From: a virus
IMG/VR virus record: IMGVR_UViG_3300044533_000198
Location: 1-20,405 of that record
Direction: 5' to 3' (one strand)
Length of the DNA: 20,405 nt
The translations under genes and the position numbers were made by a program. The notes below the pieces were generated by a model. That model had not been told where the DNA came from, made no database searches, and saw only the letters and a program-made list of their open reading frames with translations. This document shows, piece after piece, positions 3,719 to 18,213 of this stretch. Position 1 is the stretch's first letter. Every line of letters begins with the position of its first letter.

Positions 3719-4459
3719 TTAACGAACCCGACCCTCTTGATAGGCTTGCATGATTTCATCACTTAAAGCGTCATATCTAGTTGGGTCTTGCATTTTAAGC
3801 CGAATAAGGTCAGCCCTTCTATATACCTTCTTTGATGATTCACCAGAACCACCTACATCAACACCTACTGCTTTCAAGTTCTGCTTGCGAGTTACCTCGC
3901 CATCATCACTAGACTGCTTCTGTTTAACAGAACGTAACTGTTTATAGGTAGATAGCAATTCATTAGCTGAGTCGAAATCGTATCCAGAATCGGCTTGCTC
4001 AAAAATCTTAATGCGAACAGGGCTAGACTTCACCCAATTTGCAAAGTCCTGATCTTTAGCAATTTCGCCAAAGTCGGGATGTTCTTGCGCTAACCTTTGC
4101 TGAATTTGCGCCCTTTTCATTTCTAGCGTTACTTGACGTGCCGCTAGGATGTCAGGGTGATTATCAACAGTCCTTTGAACTGCCTTCTGCGGATTCTCAA
4201 AGAAATCTACTTCAGGCTCTTCCTGTCTAGTTTGTTGTCGTGAACCAAGGTTCTGTTTGATAAGTTCATCGGCTAACTTTCTGACCTCGCCAACTTCCTG
4301 TGCTTGCTTTCCAATTAACTTTTCAGCCTCTTGGTGCATCCTCACAATGTCGTCTAAACTTTTGTCCCTGTATTTCTCAGGAAGTTCAGGCTTTTGCTCG
4401 ATCTTCTGTTGCTCAATCTCTAACTCACCCAACTCTTCTTTGTCATCATCAATCAACAT
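3719..4459 (-). CDS. Capsid scaffolding protein
   Basis: The 246-aa product is very rich in Glu, Gln, Lys and Asp, almost entirely helical, with no cysteine. It contains PEKYRDKSLDDIVRMHQEAE near residue 27 and a coiled-coil IGKQAQEVGEVRKLADELIK after it. The C-terminus (YDALSDEIMQAYQEGRVR) is basic, as in scaffolds that bind the coat protein through a C-terminal helix. It lies directly upstream of the capsid gene, 18 bases apart. It would guide procapsid assembly and leave the head afterwards. An AAGGAAAAAGT precedes the ATG. Confidence 0.9.
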   Translation of the reverse strand: MLIDDDKEELGELEIEQQKIEQKPELPEKYRDKSLDDIVRMHQEAEKLIGKQAQEVGEVRKLADELIKQNLGSRQQTRQEEPEVDFFENPQKAVQRTVDNHPDILAARQVTLEMKRAQIQQRLAQEHPDFGEIAKDQDFANWVKSSPVRIKIFEQADSGYDFDSANELLSTYKQLRSVKQKQSSDDGEVTRKQNLKAVGVDVGGSGESSKKVYRRADLIRLKMQDPTRYDALSDEIMQAYQEGRVR

Positions 4460-10765: not shown

Positions 10766-11056
10766 CTAGAAGGGGCTTTTATGGCCTTTGGTGGGCATTT
10801 CTTCGCACAATCCTCGGATGGTTTCGTTCAATGCGTCTATTTCGTCCATTTTATTGATTGCCCAAGCCCTTCGTTGACCATGCCATCCCATCACTGGATT
10901 GCGGTGGCAATCGACACAAAGGGCAATGCAAGTGTACTGTAAACCTTGTTTATAGTGATGTGCCTCACTTGGGGCTGATGCCTGGCAAACTGAGCACGGG
11001 AGGTTTTTCACCCTTGCTAGGTGTAGTCTCTCTTTTGCGCTTAGTTTGTTGTTCAT
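10766..11056 (-). CDS. Ref-like / RecA-dependent nuclease family HNH-type protein, 96 aa
   Basis: The start at 11056 overlaps the upstream stop by ATGA; a longer frame to 11107 lies inside the neighbour. In this numbering there is a zinc-like C21-x2-C24, an SEAHH (30-34) with His 33/34, a C47-x2-C50-H51 and a GWHGQ (57-61). This is the arrangement of Ref-type (RecA-dependent nuclease) HNH proteins as in phage P1 Ref, only the core domain. It may cut displaced strands during recombination. Last gene of its operon. Family call from motifs; activity is inferred. Confidence 0.8.
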   Translation of the reverse strand: MNNKLSAKERLHLARVKNLPCSVCQASAPSEAHHYKQGLQYTCIALCVDCHRNPVMGWHGQRRAWAINKMDEIDALNETIRGLCEEMPTKGHKSPF

Positions 11057-11376
11057 TGTGTAGCTTTTTGCTCTATACGTGCACTGTATTGGGCGGTTCT
11101 CCAGCACTCAACCTTTGCTTGGGCGGCTGTCATTAGCCAACGATAGCGTTCTTCTATTTCAACGGCTGCCCTGATTCCCTCAAGTATTTCTACATACTCA
11201 GGGTGAGCATAAGCAAATGTGTCCTGCTTTCCAAGCACTTCAGTCTTTGCAAGGCTTTTCAGTTGTGCGTGTTTTGATCGCCTGAATTCTTCTAAAAACA
11301 TACGATCAGATTTAGCCTTTGCGTAAAGTGGGGCCGTTTTTATGATGAACTCTATTGCAAGTGTAGGCTCGTTCAC
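11053..11376 (-). CDS. Helical phage protein with MNEPT..A..FI module (full-length copy), 107 aa
   Basis: The start codon is a GTG at 11376, overlapping the upstream TGA (GTGA). Residues 1-69 (MNEPTLAIEFIIKTAPLYAK onward) are closely similar to residues 1-69 of the protein at 12047-12379; the two diverge after EGIR. The C-terminal part here (EERYRWLMTAAQAKVECWRT) is the normal ending of this family in other phages as I remember it, so this is probably the intact form and the other the chimera. All helical, basic. Function unknown; found near replication genes. Confidence 0.8.
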   Translation of the reverse strand: MNEPTLAIEFIIKTAPLYAKAKSDRMFLEEFRRSKHAQLKSLAKTEVLGKQDTFAYAHPEYVEILEGIRAAVEIEERYRWLMTAAQAKVECWRTAQYSARIEQKATQ

Positions 11377-11537
11377 GTTATCTCCCGTTCATAGTGTCGG
11401 TAGGTTGGGGCTACTTCATCTCTCCCGCATCGCCTACCATGCTCGTTAGCCTCTTGCAAAGCCTGAAAAGCCCATTTGCAGTTGGTACACACGTAATAGG
11501 GCGGGTTGCCTGGTGCATCTCTTTTTTGTTCAATCAT
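11373..11537 (-). CDS. Small Cys-containing phage protein, 54 aa
   Basis: The frame from ATG 11537 to TGA 11373 encodes 54 aa: MIEQKRDAPGNPPYYVCTNC, then KWAFQALQEANEHGRRCG and a charged tail. C17-x2-C20 and a later Cys 37 suggest a metal-binding knuckle. Its stop overlaps the GTG of the next gene, and its start overlaps the previous stop by eight bases, as expected of a real gene here. Without it there would be a 150-base hole in the operon. Confidence 0.7.
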   Translation of the reverse strand: MIEQKRDAPGNPPYYVCTNCKWAFQALQEANEHGRRCGRDEVAPTYRHYEREIT

Positions 11538-11796
11538 AGGTAATTGCCCTTTGTCGAATAATTTTGGCGCAATCTTGAATAGTTGTTCTCTCTACTTGGG
11601 CAAATTCAGGTTGATCGGGCCACTCTAGGGTCATGCTTTCGACCAGCTTTGCGTCTTCCTCTCTCTGTTGTTTAGCAACAAGTCTTGCAAAGGCTTGTAA
11701 TTGCTCGGTGTAAAACGAGTAAATGTATTCACCACTTGGGTGAACACCAAAGGCGGCAGTTTGCTTTGCCATCTTTTCGAGTTCATCTAGCTTCAT
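11530..11796 (-). CDS. Duplicated-module protein A, 88 aa
   Basis: The N-terminal 36 residues (MKLDELEKMAKQTAAFGVHP, then SGEYIYSFYTEQLQAFA) are nearly identical to those of the protein at 12848-13078; the rest differs and ends in ITYD. It looks like a small helical scaffold module with a variable tail. Similar MKLDELEKMA...FA proteins exist in phages to my memory, without function. ATGA overlap with the next upstream gene. Confidence 0.75.
   Translation of the reverse strand: MKLDELEKMAKQTAAFGVHPSGEYIYSFYTEQLQAFARLVAKQQREEDAKLVESMTLEWPDQPEFAQVERTTIQDCAKIIRQRAITYD
11688..11796. repeat. 109-base repeat, mate at 12970-13078
   Basis: The last 109 bases at the 5' ends of the genes at 11530 and 12848 align without gaps, with long identical blocks such as ATCTTTTCGAGTTCATCTAG. 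The two copies are direct and lie 1282 bases apart. They encode the shared MKLDELEKMA module. Confidence 0.85.
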
Positions 11797-11816
11797 GCTT
11801 GTCCCCTTGCTCGGAT
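11793..11816. repeat. 24-base identical repeat, mate at 12848-12871
   Basis: TCATGCTTGTCCCCTTGCTC followed by GGAT is identical at both sites. It encodes the IRARGQA ending plus the stop and the ATG of the next gene, so it is a natural junction for swapping downstream genes. Confidence 0.9.
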
Positions 11817-12050
11817 GGCTTTAACAATGTCTTGCCAATTCAAATATTTTGGGATTCTGCGTAGCGTAGGCTCAGTCCCACACGACACAACCACTTCATA
11901 CTCTCCATCAGGAATTTCAGCAATCTTTGCACACGCCTCACGCTCATGCTCTGCTACCAGTTTGGCAAAGCGCACAAGCCCATCTTCATCAAACTTCAGA
12001 CCGCTTACAGTGTGTTCTATTGCCAGTTTAACAATGTCGTCTTTGGTCAT
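11793..12050 (-). CDS. Duplicated-module protein B, 85 aa
   Basis: The start region (MTKDDIVKLAIEHTVSGLKF) is its own, but the block RFAKLVAEHEREACA and the C-terminus IRARGQA are shared with the 12848-13078 protein. The middle holds a PDGEYEVVVSCGTEPT strand segment. It is thus a mosaic of a new head, a shared connector and a shared end. Overlaps on both sides are ATGA. Function unknown. Confidence 0.75.
   Translation of the reverse strand: MTKDDIVKLAIEHTVSGLKFDEDGLVRFAKLVAEHEREACAKIAEIPDGEYEVVVSCGTEPTLRRIPKYLNWQDIVKAIRARGQA
11929..11970. repeat. 42-base identical repeat, mate at 12933-12974
   Basis: The 42 bases from GCACACGCCTCACGCTCATG to GTTTGGCAAAG are identical in both places. They encode the LVAEHEREACA connector in the 11793 and 12848 genes. 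Perfect identity implies a recent duplication or conversion. Confidence 0.9.
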
Positions 12051-12175
12051 ACATCCTCGGTTTTATAGTTGAGTTTGTGGTGCTGAAACCTCATTGCCGC
12101 CTCACACTCCATCTCTTTAAATTGCTCGTCAGAGAAAAGCCCAATGACATTGCGACCCTCAAACCAAACCTCTCT
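12047..12175. repeat. 129-base diverged repeat, mate at 13075-13203
   Basis: This encodes the REVWFEGRN...YKTED C-terminal module of the genes at 12047 and 13075. The copies have equal length, conserved blocks such as GTTTGTGGTGCTGAAACC, and many third-position changes, so they are older than the 42-base identical pair. Confidence 0.85.
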
Positions 12176-12379
12176 GATTCCCTCTAATATCCCGACATAA
12201 TCAGCGTGTGCATAGGCGTAAACCTCTTGTTTACCTAAAACCTCTGTTCCAGCTTGACTCATGAGTTGGGCTTTTCTACTTTTCCTGAATTCCTCAAGAT
12301 ACATTCGGTCGGCTTTGGCTTTGGCATACAAAGGGGCGGTATCGATTAGGTATTGAATGGCTTTGGTTGGTTCGTTCAT
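12047..12379 (-). CDS. Chimeric duplicated-module protein, 110 aa
   Basis: Residues 1-69 match the N-terminus of the protein at 11053-11376, and residues 70-110 (REVWFEGRNVIGLFSDEQ and ECEAAMRFQHHKLNYKTED) match the C-terminus of the protein at 13075-13308. The switch occurs at EGIR/EVWF, near 12173-12175. It is therefore most simply a fusion produced by recombination between two neighbouring genes. The frame is intact, so the hybrid may be expressed. Function unknown. Confidence 0.8.
   Translation of the reverse strand: MNEPTKAIQYLIDTAPLYAKAKADRMYLEEFRKSRKAQLMSQAGTEVLGKQEVYAYAHADYVGILEGIREVWFEGRNVIGLFSDEQFKEMECEAAMRFQHHKLNYKTEDV
12173..12379. repeat. 207-base diverged repeat, mate at 11170-11376
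   Basis: This encodes the 69-residue MNEPT...EGIR module shared by the genes at 11053 and 12047. A short identical block CTGATTCCCTC (11171-11181 and 12174-12184) lies right at the fusion point and may have been the microhomology for the recombination. Confidence 0.8.
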
Positions 12380-12383
12380 ATTT

Positions 12384-12851
12384 TTAACTTATCAATGTAC
12401 GAATAATATCTTTCAATTTATTTATCTCTAAGTCTTTGTCCTCAATAATTTTTTGGAGATCGTCAATAGTATTTCTGTTAGTCAAACCATTTATTGATTT
12501 AATCCTTCTTAAATTACAAAGCGTAACACCTACTGCTTCAGCCGCTTCTTTTCCTGTTGCATTTGGATTCAAGGCCAGATATTCTTTTATTCTTTTTGTA
12601 GCACTTGCTTGTGGCACTCCAATTTTTACAATTTCAGATTCAAGCCCATTTGCTTCAAAGATATGTTTTAAAAAATTAAACAAGCTGACTCTGGTGTCGT
12701 AATGCGGAATTGCACCATTTTCCCATCTTGCTAATGATTGTTGTTGAACAACTGTTTTTGCAAATTCTGAAAAAGCTGAACAAAACTGCTGTTGTGTAAA
12801 CCCTAGTGCCTGTCTATCAAGACTCAGCGACAAACCCCAATCTTTACTCAT
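12384..12851 (-). CDS. HTH (XRE-like) DNA-binding regulator with C-terminal coiled coil, 155 aa
   Basis: Residues about 8-64 form a Cro/CI-type HTH domain (SLDRQALGFTQQQFCSAF, then QQQSLARWENGAIPH). Residues about 87-120 (RIKEYLALNPNATGKEAAEA and VGVTLCNLRRIKSI) look like a second HTH. The C-terminal 35 residues form a short coiled coil, suggesting dimers. The DNA is visibly more AT-rich than its neighbours and it sits between duplicated modules, so it may be a later insertion. It starts on the preceding stop (ATGA). It could repress or activate the phage promoters here; no target is proven. Confidence 0.75.
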   Translation of the reverse strand: MSKDWGLSLSLDRQALGFTQQQFCSAFSEFAKTVVQQQSLARWENGAIPHYDTRVSLFNFLKHIFEANGLESEIVKIGVPQASATKRIKEYLALNPNATGKEAAEAVGVTLCNLRRIKSINGLTNRNTIDDLQKIIEDKDLEINKLKDIIRTLIS

Positions 12852-13078
12852 GCTTGTCCCCTTGCTCGGATAAGGGTTGCGTGATAGTTAAAATCTCCTT
12901 TAGCAAAGTCCTCAGAACATTCGCAAACTTCGGCACACGCCTCACGCTCATGCTCTGCTACCAGTTTGGCAAAGGCTTGTAGTTGTTCGGTATAAAACGA
13001 ATAAATGAATTCACCACTTGGATGAACCCCATAAGCGGCAGTCTTTTGCGCCATCTTTTCGAGTTCATCTAGCTTCAT
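12848..13078 (-). CDS. Duplicated-module protein A', 76 aa
   Basis: The first 36 residues (MKLDELEKMAQKTAAYGVHP...) nearly equal those of the 11530-11796 protein, the connector FAKLVAEHEREACA equals that of the 11793-12050 protein, and the end LIRARGQA equals the end of the latter. The central EVCECSEDFAKGDF stretch is unique. It contains parts of both neighbours, so it may be the ancestral unit from which the other two arose. ATGA overlaps on both sides. Function unknown. Confidence 0.75.
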   Translation of the reverse strand: MKLDELEKMAQKTAAYGVHPSGEFIYSFYTEQLQAFAKLVAEHEREACAEVCECSEDFAKGDFNYHATLIRARGQA

Positions 13079-13308
13079 AAATCCTCGGTCTTGTAGTTGA
13101 GTTTGTGGTGCTGAAACCGCATTGCAGCTTCACATTCGAGTTCACGAAAAGCCTCGTCAGTTAGCAACCCGATGCAATTACGCCCCTCGAACCAAACTTC
13201 CCGTACGGACTCATTGAAGGTGTCGTCAATGTCTTGCTCGTATTCGTAAACGACTGTTACGACTTCGCTACCCGCACCGATTGTTGTATCAAATTCCCAT
13301 GTGTTCAT
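13075..13308 (-). CDS. Small phage protein, MNTWEFDTTIGAGSEVVTV type, 77 aa
   Basis: An AGGAG lies six bases before ATG 13308 but only three before the ATG 13311, so 13308 is preferred. The N-terminal part (MNTWEFDTTIGAGSEVVTVV, then YEYEQDI) is a beta-rich motif I recall in small phage proteins; the C-terminal part (REVWFEGRNCIGLLTDEAFR onward) is shared with the chimera at 12047. First gene of the operon 10766-13308, behind an AT-rich leader. Function unknown. Confidence 0.75.
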   Translation of the reverse strand: MNTWEFDTTIGAGSEVVTVVYEYEQDIDDTFNESVREVWFEGRNCIGLLTDEAFRELECEAAMRFQHHKLNYKTEDL

Positions 13309-13360
13309 CATTAACTCCTGTTTAAAAATTAAATATTATCAAATTGTTTATGGTTTGGAA

Positions 13361-13376
13361 TAGGGACTTACCCTTA
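13361..13376 (-). promoter_or_regulatory. AGGG-N5-CCC-TAT regulatory element upstream of the 10766-13308 operon
   Basis: On the minus strand the region reads AAGGGTAAGTCCCTATTCC, strongly like AAGGGTAAACCCTATAAG at the late promoter. It overlaps the last codons of the resolvase gene and lies about 55 bases before the operon start. The -35 here is not convincing, so I call it an operator or promoter element without choosing. Confidence 0.45.
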
Positions 13377-13802
13377 GTCCAAGCATTCTTTTACGCAAAT
13401 ATCAACACCTGGCAGACTTGAATAAACCTTGGTAACGTGTATGTTGATGATCTGCGAGTCGTCATGGTAAACAACCCCGTTCATGCCATCTTCTACGCTT
13501 TTCAGGATATTGCTTGCGTCTGGCTTCTTTGTTGGCTTCTCTGACCCGTTAGAAATAGCCTCTAAACGCTTTTTGGTGCATGACTTGGGGATTGGTACTC
13601 GAATGTAAAGATAAAGGCTGACAGGGGTTTCCAATGGTTCGGAAGCACCCATTGCCTCGATTGCAGAATCCCTGATTAAAGTCTCATAGGTTCTTGTCTT
13701 CTCAGGGGTGTAAGTTTGCACAAAGTTTCCCCTCTTAACGTATCTAGCCCTTTGTTTGCCAACAGGGTTAGCGTCTACTTTAAAAGTTACCATGAATGTC
13801 AT
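13374..13802 (-). CDS. rusA: RusA-family Holliday junction resolvase
   Basis: The start at 13802 overlaps the methyltransferase stop (ATGA); upstream Met codons lie inside that gene. The 142-aa product has NPVGKQRAR near residue 12 and the catalytic region KKPDASNILKSVEDG with Asp 95, then GVVYHDDSQI with Asp 114/115. E. coli RusA uses PDxDN; here the second Asp is replaced by Ser 97, a variant I have seen in other phage members. It cuts four-way junctions made during recombination or replication and works with the ERF and SSB-like proteins in this window. Confidence 0.92.
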   Translation of the reverse strand: MTFMVTFKVDANPVGKQRARYVKRGNFVQTYTPEKTRTYETLIRDSAIEAMGASEPLETPVSLYLYIRVPIPKSCTKKRLEAISNGSEKPTKKPDASNILKSVEDGMNGVVYHDDSQIINIHVTKVYSSLPGVDICVKECLD

Positions 13803-14659
13803 TTTAGGATTCTCCATGCGGTAGCTGCACACAAGGGGACTTGTCCATTTCCAATGGCTTTAAGTCTGTCCACCCTAGCGGCCACCCCATCAACCACTCT
13901 ACCCAATTTGGGTTCAAAGTGCCACCAATCGGCCTCTGTTCCAAATGTTGGATTACGTTTGGCAATTGTCCCATGTGCGCTCTCTGACCATCCGCTATTT
14001 TTCTTTTGGTTGTTTCGAACCCATTTGCCCCTTTGTAGTCCCTGGTTGTTGGAGTCGGAAACATTCGTTGTCCCACAATAGTTTCTAGGTTTGGATTGCG
14101 TTTCTCGTTCCAAGCTGACTCTGGAGTTATCGTTGCTGCCATTGCTGAACAACTGCGAGGTGTAGGCCAGTTTTCCAACGATCCAGATTCTGTCCCTCTG
14201 ATGGTTTGCTCCAACGTCCGCTGCTCCCAACACTCCCCATCTCGCATCAAACCCCATTGTGGCCAGGTCTCCAAGAACTCGTCCAAGTCCCCGAGAAGTG
14301 AGCATTGGTGAGTTCTCCACAAAGACGTATCGGGGTCGTACTTCGTGAATGATCCTCGCCATTTCTCGCCACATTCCTGAGGCTTCTCCATCAATTCCTG
14401 CTCCTTTTCCTGCTGCGGAAATGTCGGTGCATGGAAAGCCTCCAGATATAACGTCAACAATTCCTCTCCACGGCTTTCCGTCAAAGGTTTGAACGTCATC
14501 CCAAATCGGGAAAGGCGGGAGAAGCCCGTCATTTTGTCTGGCGCACAGTACGCTTGCGGGGTACTGCTCCCACTCGACTGCACAGACTGTTCTCCATCCA
14601 AGGAGATGTCCCCCAAGTATTCCTCCACCAGCACCTGCGAATAAAGCCAACTCATTCAA
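13799..14659 (-). CDS. DNA (cytosine-5-)-methyltransferase
   Basis: The 286-aa product has motif I FAGAGGG (7-13), an AVEWEQYP acidic motif II near 29, motif IV GGFPCTDIS with catalytic Cys 77, motif VI YVFVENSP (Glu 115), motif VIII HQRDRIW (153-159) and motif X AIGNGQVP (268-275). The region 165-235, expected to be the target-recognition part, is poor in structure and rich in Asn/Ser/Gln. It methylates cytosine C5, probably to protect phage DNA from host restriction; the recognised site is unknown and no partner endonuclease is visible. A second frame covers almost the whole gene; see the next entry. Confidence 0.93.
   Translation of the reverse strand: MNELALFAGAGGGILGGHLLGWRTVCAVEWEQYPASVLCARQNDGLLPPFPIWDDVQTFDGKPWRGIVDVISGGFPCTDISAAGKGAGIDGEASGMWREMARIIHEVRPRYVFVENSPMLTSRGLGRVLGDLATMGFDARWGVLGAADVGANHQRDRIWIVGKLAYTSQLFSNGSNDNSRVSLERETQSKPRNYCGTTNVSDSNNQGLQRGKWVRNNQKKNSGWSESAHGTIAKRNPTFGTEADWWHFEPKLGRVVDGVAARVDRLKAIGNGQVPLCAATAWRILK
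13804..14655 (-). CDS. Overlapping-frame protein coextensive with the methyltransferase, 283 aa
   Basis: In the +1 frame a 283-codon reading frame starts four bases after the methyltransferase ATG (ATGAATGAG) and ends five bases before its stop. It holds phrases that I recall from many phage and prophage proteins: TGFSRLSRFGMT, SLWRTHQCSLLGDLDEF, ETWPQWGLMRDGECWEQ, WPTP (163-166), FPTPTTRDYKG (199-209) and LNPNWVEWLMGWPLGWTDL (247-265). The FPTPTTRDYKG stretch lies over DSNNQGLQR of the enzyme, and the LNP stretch over PKLGRVVDGVAARVDR. LNP.FVEWLMG.P.GW also occurs in C-terminal parts of other C5 methyltransferases. Either a true overprinted gene or a recurrent open shadow frame. Function unknown. 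Confidence 0.45.
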   Translation of the reverse strand: MSWLYSQVLVEEYLGDISLDGEQSVQSSGSSTPQAYCAPDKMTGFSRLSRFGMTFKPLTESRGEELLTLYLEAFHAPTFPQQEKEQELMEKPQECGEKWRGSFTKYDPDTSLWRTHQCSLLGDLDEFLETWPQWGLMRDGECWEQRTLEQTIRGTESGSLENWPTPRSCSAMAATITPESAWNEKRNPNLETIVGQRMFPTPTTRDYKGANGFETTKRKIADGQRAHMGQLPNVIQHLEQRPIGGTLNPNWVEWLMGWPLGWTDLKPLEMDKSPCVQLPHGES

Positions 14660-17362: not shown

Positions 17363-17977
17363 ATGGGTGTACATAAAAAGTTGATGGAGGCAAGGTTACT
17401 CTTGCAACACGCTCCACTTAAAAAGTCGGGTCACAACAAATTTGCGGGGTATTCGTACTTTGAATTAGGTGACTTTCTGCCAACAATCAACTCAATCTTC
17501 TATAAGACTGGTTTGTGTGGTGTAGTGTCATTTGGCAAAGAGTTGGCTAGTCTGACTATCACAGACACAGATGATGGCTCAGAGATCGTTCTGACAAGCC
17601 CTATGGCAGAAGCAAACCTCAAAGGTTGCCATCCAATCCAAAACCTTGGTGCGGTAGAAACGTATACCAGGCGTTATCTGTGGGTTTCAGCAATGGAGAT
17701 TGTTGAACACGATGCACTCGATTCTTCTGCGCCTTTGAAGGAAGATAAGGTCATCATTAGCCCCACTCAAGGCGCACAAGATAATATTCCTCCAGAGGAG
17801 TTACAGTACTTGCAAGAGATGGCAGTTGAATTGATTGCTACCTGTGAGCAAGGTGACCCCAAGGCAGCTTGGGATAAGTTGGAATCAGAGAACCTAGATA
17901 GCGAACAGAAGATCGCTCTTTGGACTCTGCTTCCCAGTAAAGTGCGTTCAGCGTTAAAGAAAGCAAAGGAAATGTGA
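17363..17977 (+). CDS. erf: ERF-family single-strand annealing recombinase
   Basis: The 204-aa product has the ERF core: FAGYSYFELGDFLPTINSIF (residues 27-46) and GCHPIQNLGAVETYTRRYLW near 93-112. The remaining part is helical and acidic (PPEELQYLQEMAVELI). P22 Erf-type proteins form rings on single-stranded DNA and anneal complementary ends for circularisation and recombination. An AAAGGAGTTAATC precedes the ATG. It is followed by an SSB-like gene, its usual partner. Confidence 0.92.
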   Translation: MGVHKKLMEARLLLQHAPLKKSGHNKFAGYSYFELGDFLPTINSIFYKTGLCGVVSFGKELASLTITDTDDGSEIVLTSPMAEANLKGCHPIQNLGAVETYTRRYLWVSAMEIVEHDALDSSAPLKEDKVIISPTQGAQDNIPPEELQYLQEMAVELIATCEQGDPKAAWDKLESENLDSEQKIALWTLLPSKVRSALKKAKEM

Positions 17978-18213
17978 TGGAAAAGAAGGATAACTCAGGC
18001 GTTTTGTTCAAAAACGACAAAAAGGAGTCAGAGAAACACCCTGATTACAAAGGAAATATTACAGTGGGTGGTCAAGATTACTGGCTATCTGCATGGATTA
18101 AAGAGGGCAAGTCAGGCAAGTTCATGGGTTTAGCAGTATCACCCAAAGAAGACTATCAGCCCAAACAAGCCCCTAAAAAGGCTAGTTTTGAAGACGAAGA
18201 CCTGCCGTTTTGA
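17977..18213 (+). CDS. Small SSB-like protein with acidic DEDLPF tail, 78 aa
   Basis: The ATG at 17977 overlaps the ERF stop by one base and has AAAGGA six bases before it; an in-frame GTG at 17974 is less likely. The middle (YKGNITVGGQDYWLSAWIKE, then GKFMGLAVSPKE) looks like a short OB-fold-type strand set, and the end FEDEDLPF resembles the acidic tip of SSB. Similar short proteins follow recombinase genes in phages. It probably binds single-stranded DNA or recruits partners through its tail; the 78-aa length is less than a full SSB domain. Single-strand binding is inferred. Confidence 0.7.
   Translation: MEKKDNSGVLFKNDKKESEKHPDYKGNITVGGQDYWLSAWIKEGKSGKFMGLAVSPKEDYQPKQAPKKASFEDEDLPF

What the first reader, a model, noticed from the sequence alone, without database searches (positions are those of the whole stretch)
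11053..13308. Cassette of shuffled, duplicated gene modules
Seen: five small genes are built from four modules in different combinations. MNEPT...EGIR is in 11053 and 12047; REVWFEGRN...YKTED in 12047 and 13075; MKLDELEKMA... in 11530 and 12848; AKLVAEHEREACA plus IRARGQA in 11793 and 12848. Nucleotide identity ranges from 100% over 42 and 24 bases to clear divergence, so exchange happened more than once. Frames stay intact. Inference: an active domain-shuffling locus that generates variant small proteins, possibly against host defence.
Basis: seen in the sequence. Interest (0 to 1): 0.7.

Follow-up and report, generated by a model that had tools for sequence, protein, structure and literature searches.

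The report
Phage gene cassette with swappable protein halves
A group of freshwater phages carries, at one variable spot in the genome, tiny unknown genes whose front and back halves are swapped between viruses at a short conserved middle stretch, giving a large combinatorial set of small proteins; the sequenced virus here also carries two versions of the spot joined end to end.

Summary

(1) The A and B modules are not freely shuffled. They belong to two conserved framework genes, g8 (13075-13311) and g1 (11053-11376), which flank a variable cassette site. I found 186 distinct haplotypes, 47 of them empty, with 46 gene families. The window carries two cassette versions joined head to tail. Gene 12047-12379 is the in-frame joint, the 5' part of a g1 fused to the 3' part of a g8. 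It occurs in one other contig, identical to the window over 6,547 bp, and nowhere else among the relatives retrieved.

(2) The other modules belong to one unnamed family of ~60-100 aa proteins (11530, 11793, 12848). Across 185 distinct genes, 63 N-half and 74 C-half types occur in 114 pairings, with 32 complete four-way quartets. Some pairs have 100% identical DNA in one half and unrelated sequence in the other. All 92 one-ended switches fall in a 42-nt conserved hinge. C halves are shared with phages lacking the framework genes.

Likely mechanism: homology-directed exchange at the hinge, plausibly by the phage's ERF annealase. Function is unknown; host-facing binders are inferred. New variant of phage domain shuffling.

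The parts
   Evidence: G8N-B architecture in 110 relatives; flanks the variable site in 186 haplotypes
12848..13078 (-). g7, swappable-half family (76 aa): MKLDELEK N half + hinge + C half ending IRARGQA
   Evidence: N/C clustering; C half 100% nt identical in L017 with a different N half; AF2 pLDDT 88
12932..12973 (-). hinge of g7 (FAKLVAEHEREACA, 42 nt)
   Evidence: switch points fall here
12848..12871 (-). 24-nt conserved 3' tail (IRARGQA, stop, next start)
   Evidence: identical to 11793-11816
12384..12851 (-). g6, 155 aa, weak helix-turn-helix-like; only in the L002-type cassette
   Evidence: Pfam HTH_3 E 0.003, below cut-off; 99-100% nt in L002
12047..12379 (-). g5, hybrid gene: 5' part of a g1 (module A) fused in frame to 3' part of a g8 (module B)
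   Evidence: only in the window and the identical contig L028; parents identified
12169..12178 (-). joint; ATCAGAGAGG, similar in both parent types (g1-type ATWAGAGAGG, g8-type ATCAAAGAGG)
11793..12050 (-). g4, swappable-half family (85 aa)
   Evidence: C half 96% nt identical in L298/L299 with an unrelated N half
11928..11969 (-). hinge of g4
   Evidence: 42 bases shared with g7
11793..11816 (-). 24-nt conserved 3' tail of g4
11530..11796 (-). g3, swappable-half family (88 aa): MKLDELEK N half + diverged hinge FARLVAKQQREEDA + C0 half
11650..11691 (-). hinge of g3
11373..11537 (-). g2, 54 aa, zinc-finger-like; commonly follows C0-type members
   Evidence: DUF7128 E 7e-4 but below cut-off; architectures
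11053..11376 (-). g1, downstream framework gene (107 aa); its 5' part is module A
   Evidence: A-G1C architecture in 114 relatives
13374..13832 (-). RusA-like Holliday junction resolvase next to the site
   Evidence: Pfam RusA E 1.8e-32, PHROG 140
17363..17977 (+). ERF single-strand annealing protein, candidate exchange enzyme
   Evidence: Pfam ERF E 1.1e-8; PHROG 155 E 3.7e-20
17974..18213 (+). single-strand DNA-binding protein
   Evidence: PHROG 18154 E 4.4e-15

Best explanation
The locus is a variable cassette site between two conserved framework genes, g8 and g1, in a freshwater tailed-phage group. SHOWN: the site ranges from empty to 13 small genes, mostly chained by 4-base stop/start overlaps. 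Its commonest gene family has N and C halves that have been exchanged between phages, with the switch inside a 42-nt hinge. The window's interval consists of two cassette versions found separately in other phages; hybrid gene g5 is where the g1 of one meets the g8 of the other. INFERRED: exchange is homology-directed and uses the hinge (and often the conserved 3' tail) as the shared stretch, plausibly carried out by the phage's ERF annealase during mixed infection; the joint arose by one crossover at a short similar stretch. INFERRED, weaker (about 0.35): the proteins share a three-helix scaffold whose two variable segments (between helices 1-2 and 2-3) are exchanged independently, giving small binders of varying host or rival targets.
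For: Framework and variable site. Two cassette versions: window 12301-13350 is 99-100% identical to L002, and 11251-11700 is 93-100% identical to cassettes such as L025/L031; joint and parents; second assembly. Swapping: 185 genes, 63 N x 74 C types, 114 pairings, 13 independent cycles, 32 four-way quartets; 68 pairs with N half >=97% nt and a different C half, 61 the reverse. Control: 59/138 family genes are in mosaic pairs against 132/4453 other genes. 92/92 one-ended switch points lie in the hinge window (0.32-0.38 expected if uniform). N-half and C-half distances correlate at r 0.21, against 0.53-0.78 in 10 of 13 control families. DNA-level hinge conservation: identical codon given same residue 0.61 in pairs differing in both halves, against 0.40-0.53 in control families at 20-40% identity. 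Cross-group sharing: g7 C half 100% nt in L017, g4 C half 96% in L298/L299, other half different in all 44 cross-group cases. Pairings recur: 23 in two or more IMG datasets. Shared topology in two AF2 models. ERF and SSB present; a phage Erf is efficient on diverged sequences (PMC3945230).
Against: Hinge conservation can also reflect protein constraint on the central helix; the stretch is enriched in identical codons but not invariant, and recent common origin could contribute. No reads were available, and no experiment ties ERF to these exchanges. Nothing tests the binding role; modules evolve under purifying selection. The g4 model is only moderate (pLDDT 72.7). The exact order of events behind the joint is not resolved: the A part of g5 is nearer to L085/L007 (93%) than to L002 (88%).
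Confidence: 0.75

Rival explanations
1. Ordinary tandem duplication: one ancestral cassette was duplicated inside this phage and the copies diverged.
For: The order g8-part, family gene(s), g1-part is repeated, and g5 is what a duplication joint would look like.
Against: The upstream half is 99-100% identical to L002 and the downstream half 93-100% identical over 11251-11700 to other phages (L025, L031), while the two halves are only 74-85% alike; gene content differs between halves. The halves were different before they were joined.
Confidence: 0.08
2. Assembly chimeras: short-read assemblers joined different strains at the conserved 42-nt hinge and within g5.
For: All data are metagenome contigs, the hinge is shared by many genes, and mixed strains are present (14 haplotypes in one dataset).
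Against: 23 pairings recur in two or more independent datasets and 21 have two or more distinct nucleotide alleles; the g5 joint recurs in a second contig; the joint has about 10 nt of similarity, too short for typical assembler k-mers (general knowledge). Pairings seen only once could still be chimeric.
Confidence: 0.07
3. The hinge is conserved only because the protein needs it; module swapping is a by-product of general phage mosaicism, the cassettes are near-neutral passengers, and no diversification function exists.
For: Other genes of these phages (DUF1376-like replication gene, ERF) are also mosaic; the hinge lies in the central helix of both models; 47 of 186 haplotypes lack any cassette.
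Against: Most families of 20 or more members show no mosaic pairs at all, while 43% of this family's genes do; purifying selection on both halves argues against pure passengers.
Confidence: 0.35

Closest known systems
Domain mosaicism of phage proteins (Smug et al. 2023, PMC10684548)
   Same: Fragments shared between otherwise unrelated phage proteins, recent and ongoing shuffling
   Different: Reported hotspots are receptor-binding proteins, endolysins and replication proteins; here it is an unnamed family of 60-100 aa accessory proteins with one fixed switch point. The authors predicted more mosaicism in proteins of unknown function and accessory proteins.
Relaxed homologous recombination by Rad52-like phage annealases (De Paepe et al. 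2014, PMC3945230)
   Same: Erf/Red-beta-type enzymes recombine short, diverged stretches and make mosaic genomes; this phage encodes an ERF
   Different: There exchanges between phage and prophage sequences were measured; here the inferred exchange recurs within one 42-nt stretch inside a tiny gene. The enzyme link is inferred.
KilA-N / Bro-N / antirepressor proteins with exchangeable N- and C-terminal domains (from own knowledge)
   Same: Phage proteins with recombining halves
   Different: No sequence match; those are larger, named DNA-binding domains
lambda nin region (from own knowledge)
   Same: Chain of small overlapping genes, in some lambdoid phages with a RusA-type resolvase, mosaic among phages
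   Different: Different genes; nin genes are not known to me to swap halves at one hinge

Membership tests
Phage domain mosaicism (Smug 2023 sense) | Homologous fragment shared by proteins otherwise unrelated | tested here: met
   129 half-shared pairs at >=97% nt identity; control. The halves differ in type, but all members share the hinge.
Phage domain mosaicism (Smug 2023 sense) | Evidence of recent exchange | tested here: met
   100% nucleotide identity in one half, unrelated other half
KilA-N / Bro-N antirepressors | Match to the named domains | tested here: not met
   No Pfam, PHROG or NCBIfam match of that kind in 47 members
Shufflon / invertible gene segment | Inverted repeats at segment ends | tested here: not met
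   Repeats are direct; only two weak inverted pairs, not at module ends
Diversity-generating retroelement | Reverse transcriptase with template/variable repeat and adenine-specific changes | not tested
   No reverse transcriptase among the window proteins scanned, but not all ORFs were scanned; the variation is whole-half replacement, not point changes
Integron-type cassette array | Site-specific integrase and attC-like site per cassette | tested here: inconclusive
   No such repeat per cassette seen; integrase not specifically searched
lambda nin-like region | Small overlapping genes beside a Holliday junction resolvase | tested here: met
   -4 overlaps dominate (231 cases); RusA adjacent
lambda nin-like region | Homologous nin genes (orf, rap) | not tested
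   Not searched specifically

The most novel reading that the evidence does not exclude
The hinge DNA is itself maintained as an exchange site: a phage-borne combinatorial system in which a conserved 42-nt stretch in the middle of a tiny gene, together with the conserved tail, lets an annealase mix N and C halves across unrelated phages, producing a shared library of small binders.
Probability: 0.25. Interest if true: 0.85.

Novelty: new variant of a known kind. Interest (0 to 1): 0.6.

Why it matters
Phage domain shuffling is known mainly in large host-facing and replication proteins. Here it appears as extensive mixing of halves in very small accessory proteins, with a fixed switch point, an empty-site baseline and many natural recombinants. 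The family has no entry in Pfam, PHROGs or NCBIfam. It offers a natural library in which one half can be held constant while the other varies, so the contribution of each half to function could be tested directly. The window also catches a state in which two cassette versions are joined through one fusion between framework genes, a simple route by which such islands could grow.

Tried and rejected
Simple tandem duplication: rejected, the halves have different close relatives. A as a freely mobile module: rejected, the retrieved relatives of g5 are g1 or g8 genes. Function by family search: none in Pfam, PHROGs, NCBIfam. Function by structure: no PDB match (best Foldseek E 0.66); viral library hits are uncharacterised proteins of uncultured phages. 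Host: one weak relative in a Hydrogenophaga MAG; host not established. Annotated phage records: no match with two queries, two weak ones with a third; a plasmid search gave none. The queries were composite sequences typed for the search, not natural proteins, so those two results are only rough guides. First hinge expression missed a variant and was replaced. Literature search for the EREACA motif gave only unrelated text. Positive selection by point change: not seen.

Full report
WHAT IS THERE. The window is a 20,405-base virus record of a tailed phage: portal, terminase, major head protein, ERF annealase, single-strand binding protein, RusA, cytosine methylase. On the minus strand eight small genes run from 13311 to 11053, nearly all joined by short overlaps.

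RELATIVES. Scans of IMG/VR with five of these genes gave about 360 loci. They show that module A belongs to one gene (g1: A plus its own C-terminus, 114 of 118 hits) and module B to another (g8, 110 of 113 hits). These two genes flank a variable interval: 186 distinct haplotypes, 47 with nothing between them, others with up to 13 genes, 46 families, 61 architectures (genes called by a simple script of mine). One dataset (3300020042) alone holds 14 haplotypes, in which one N-half type occurs with six C halves.

THE JOINT. The upstream half of the window's interval (g8, g7, g6, start of g5) is 99-100% identical over 12301-13350 to L002, where it ends in a complete g1. The downstream half resembles other phages (L025, L031), 93-100% over 11251-11700. 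Gene g5 changes from g1-type to g8-type sequence at 12169-12178, where both parent types have a similar ten-base stretch, in frame. No other of 138 non-empty intervals holds a second g1 or g8 part. A separate contig with the identical joint exists. This is two cassette versions joined, not a duplication. Shorter patches (for example the 3' part of the A module, nearer to L007/L085 than to L002) show further exchange.

THE SWAPPABLE FAMILY. Genes 11530, 11793 and 12848 belong to one family of 185 distinct genes in the data (176 proteins): N half, hinge FAKLVAEHEREACA, C half usually ending IRARGQA. Clustered at 60% identity there are 63 N types and 74 C types in 114 pairings; 32 quartets have all four combinations, which descent without exchange does not readily give; thresholds of 50% and 70% give 31 and 30. 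In 68 pairs the N halves are at least 97% identical in DNA while the C halves differ in type, and in 61 pairs the reverse. The alignment shows it for the window's own genes: g7's C half is base for base the same in L017, which has a different N half, and g4's C half is 96% identical in L298.

CONTROLS. With one criterion for all genes, 59 of 138 family genes but 132 of 4,453 others are in mosaic pairs; most large families have none, while a DUF1376-like replication gene and ERF have some. Switch points found without reference to the hinge fall in the hinge window in 92 of 92 one-ended cases, against 32-38% expected if uniform. N-half and C-half distances correlate weakly in the family (r 0.21) and strongly in most control families (0.53-0.78; exceptions: the two mosaic families, 0.34 and 0.43, and a small, little-varied one, 0.12). 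Loci were fetched partly with family members as queries, so family size is enriched, but the swapping measures are not directly selected for. Pairings are not assembly noise in general: 23 recur in two or more datasets (dataset labels were transcribed by hand).

REACH. A 29-base hinge word (one free position) occurs exactly in 34 stretches of viral contigs, many without the framework genes; several such records of 20-70 kb have no terminase match to the window or only a weak one. In 44 cross-group cases of a shared half, the other half always differs. 'Out-group' here means no match to eight window proteins in the DNA held, at most about 12 kb per locus.

HOW IT PROBABLY WORKS. In both predicted models helix 1, a variable segment, a central helix holding the hinge, a second variable segment and a C-terminal helix follow each other (the second of moderate confidence). 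Exchange within the central helix would therefore swap either variable segment while keeping the scaffold. The hinge is more alike in DNA than its protein conservation predicts (0.61 against 0.40-0.53), and so is the tail (0.71), as expected if both serve as stretches of homology; but other causes could contribute. An ERF-type annealase, of a kind shown to act on diverged sequences (PMC3945230), is encoded here. This link is inferred, as is the function. Purifying selection (dN/dS 0.23 and 0.16) says the halves are real protein. I favour small host- or rival-facing binders at about 0.35.

NOVELTY. Domain mosaicism in phages is known, and its occurrence in unknown and accessory proteins was predicted (PMC10684548). 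The family, its fixed switch point and the degree of mixing appear undescribed in what I could search. New variant of a known kind.

Noticed in passing
window 13799-14659 and 13804-14655 (both minus strand): Two long ORFs in different frames over the cytosine methylase gene; in 24 gapless relatives the second frame had 23 stops in all (its ends included) against 198 in the third frame, so it stays largely open. Possible dual coding.
   Followed up: partly
families 8 and 13; window 17363-17977 for ERF: A DUF1376-like replication gene family (46 of 114 genes) and ERF (23 of 63) are also mosaic in these phages.
   Followed up: no
L031: The g4-like and g3-like genes form a single 165-aa ORF, so two family members are fused.
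   Followed up: no
L099: A 44-aa piece of module A lies upstream of a complete g1; may be a second, independent cassette-joining event.
   Followed up: no
L395 (MW202484.1 30627-38842), locus 4001-4216: Possible unannotated family member directly beside rusA in a Manatee Spring podovirus (weak match); the same record has a module A relative at 37599-37787.
   Followed up: partly
window 11373-11537: The zinc-finger-like gene g2 commonly follows C0-type family members with an 8-base overlap.
   Followed up: no
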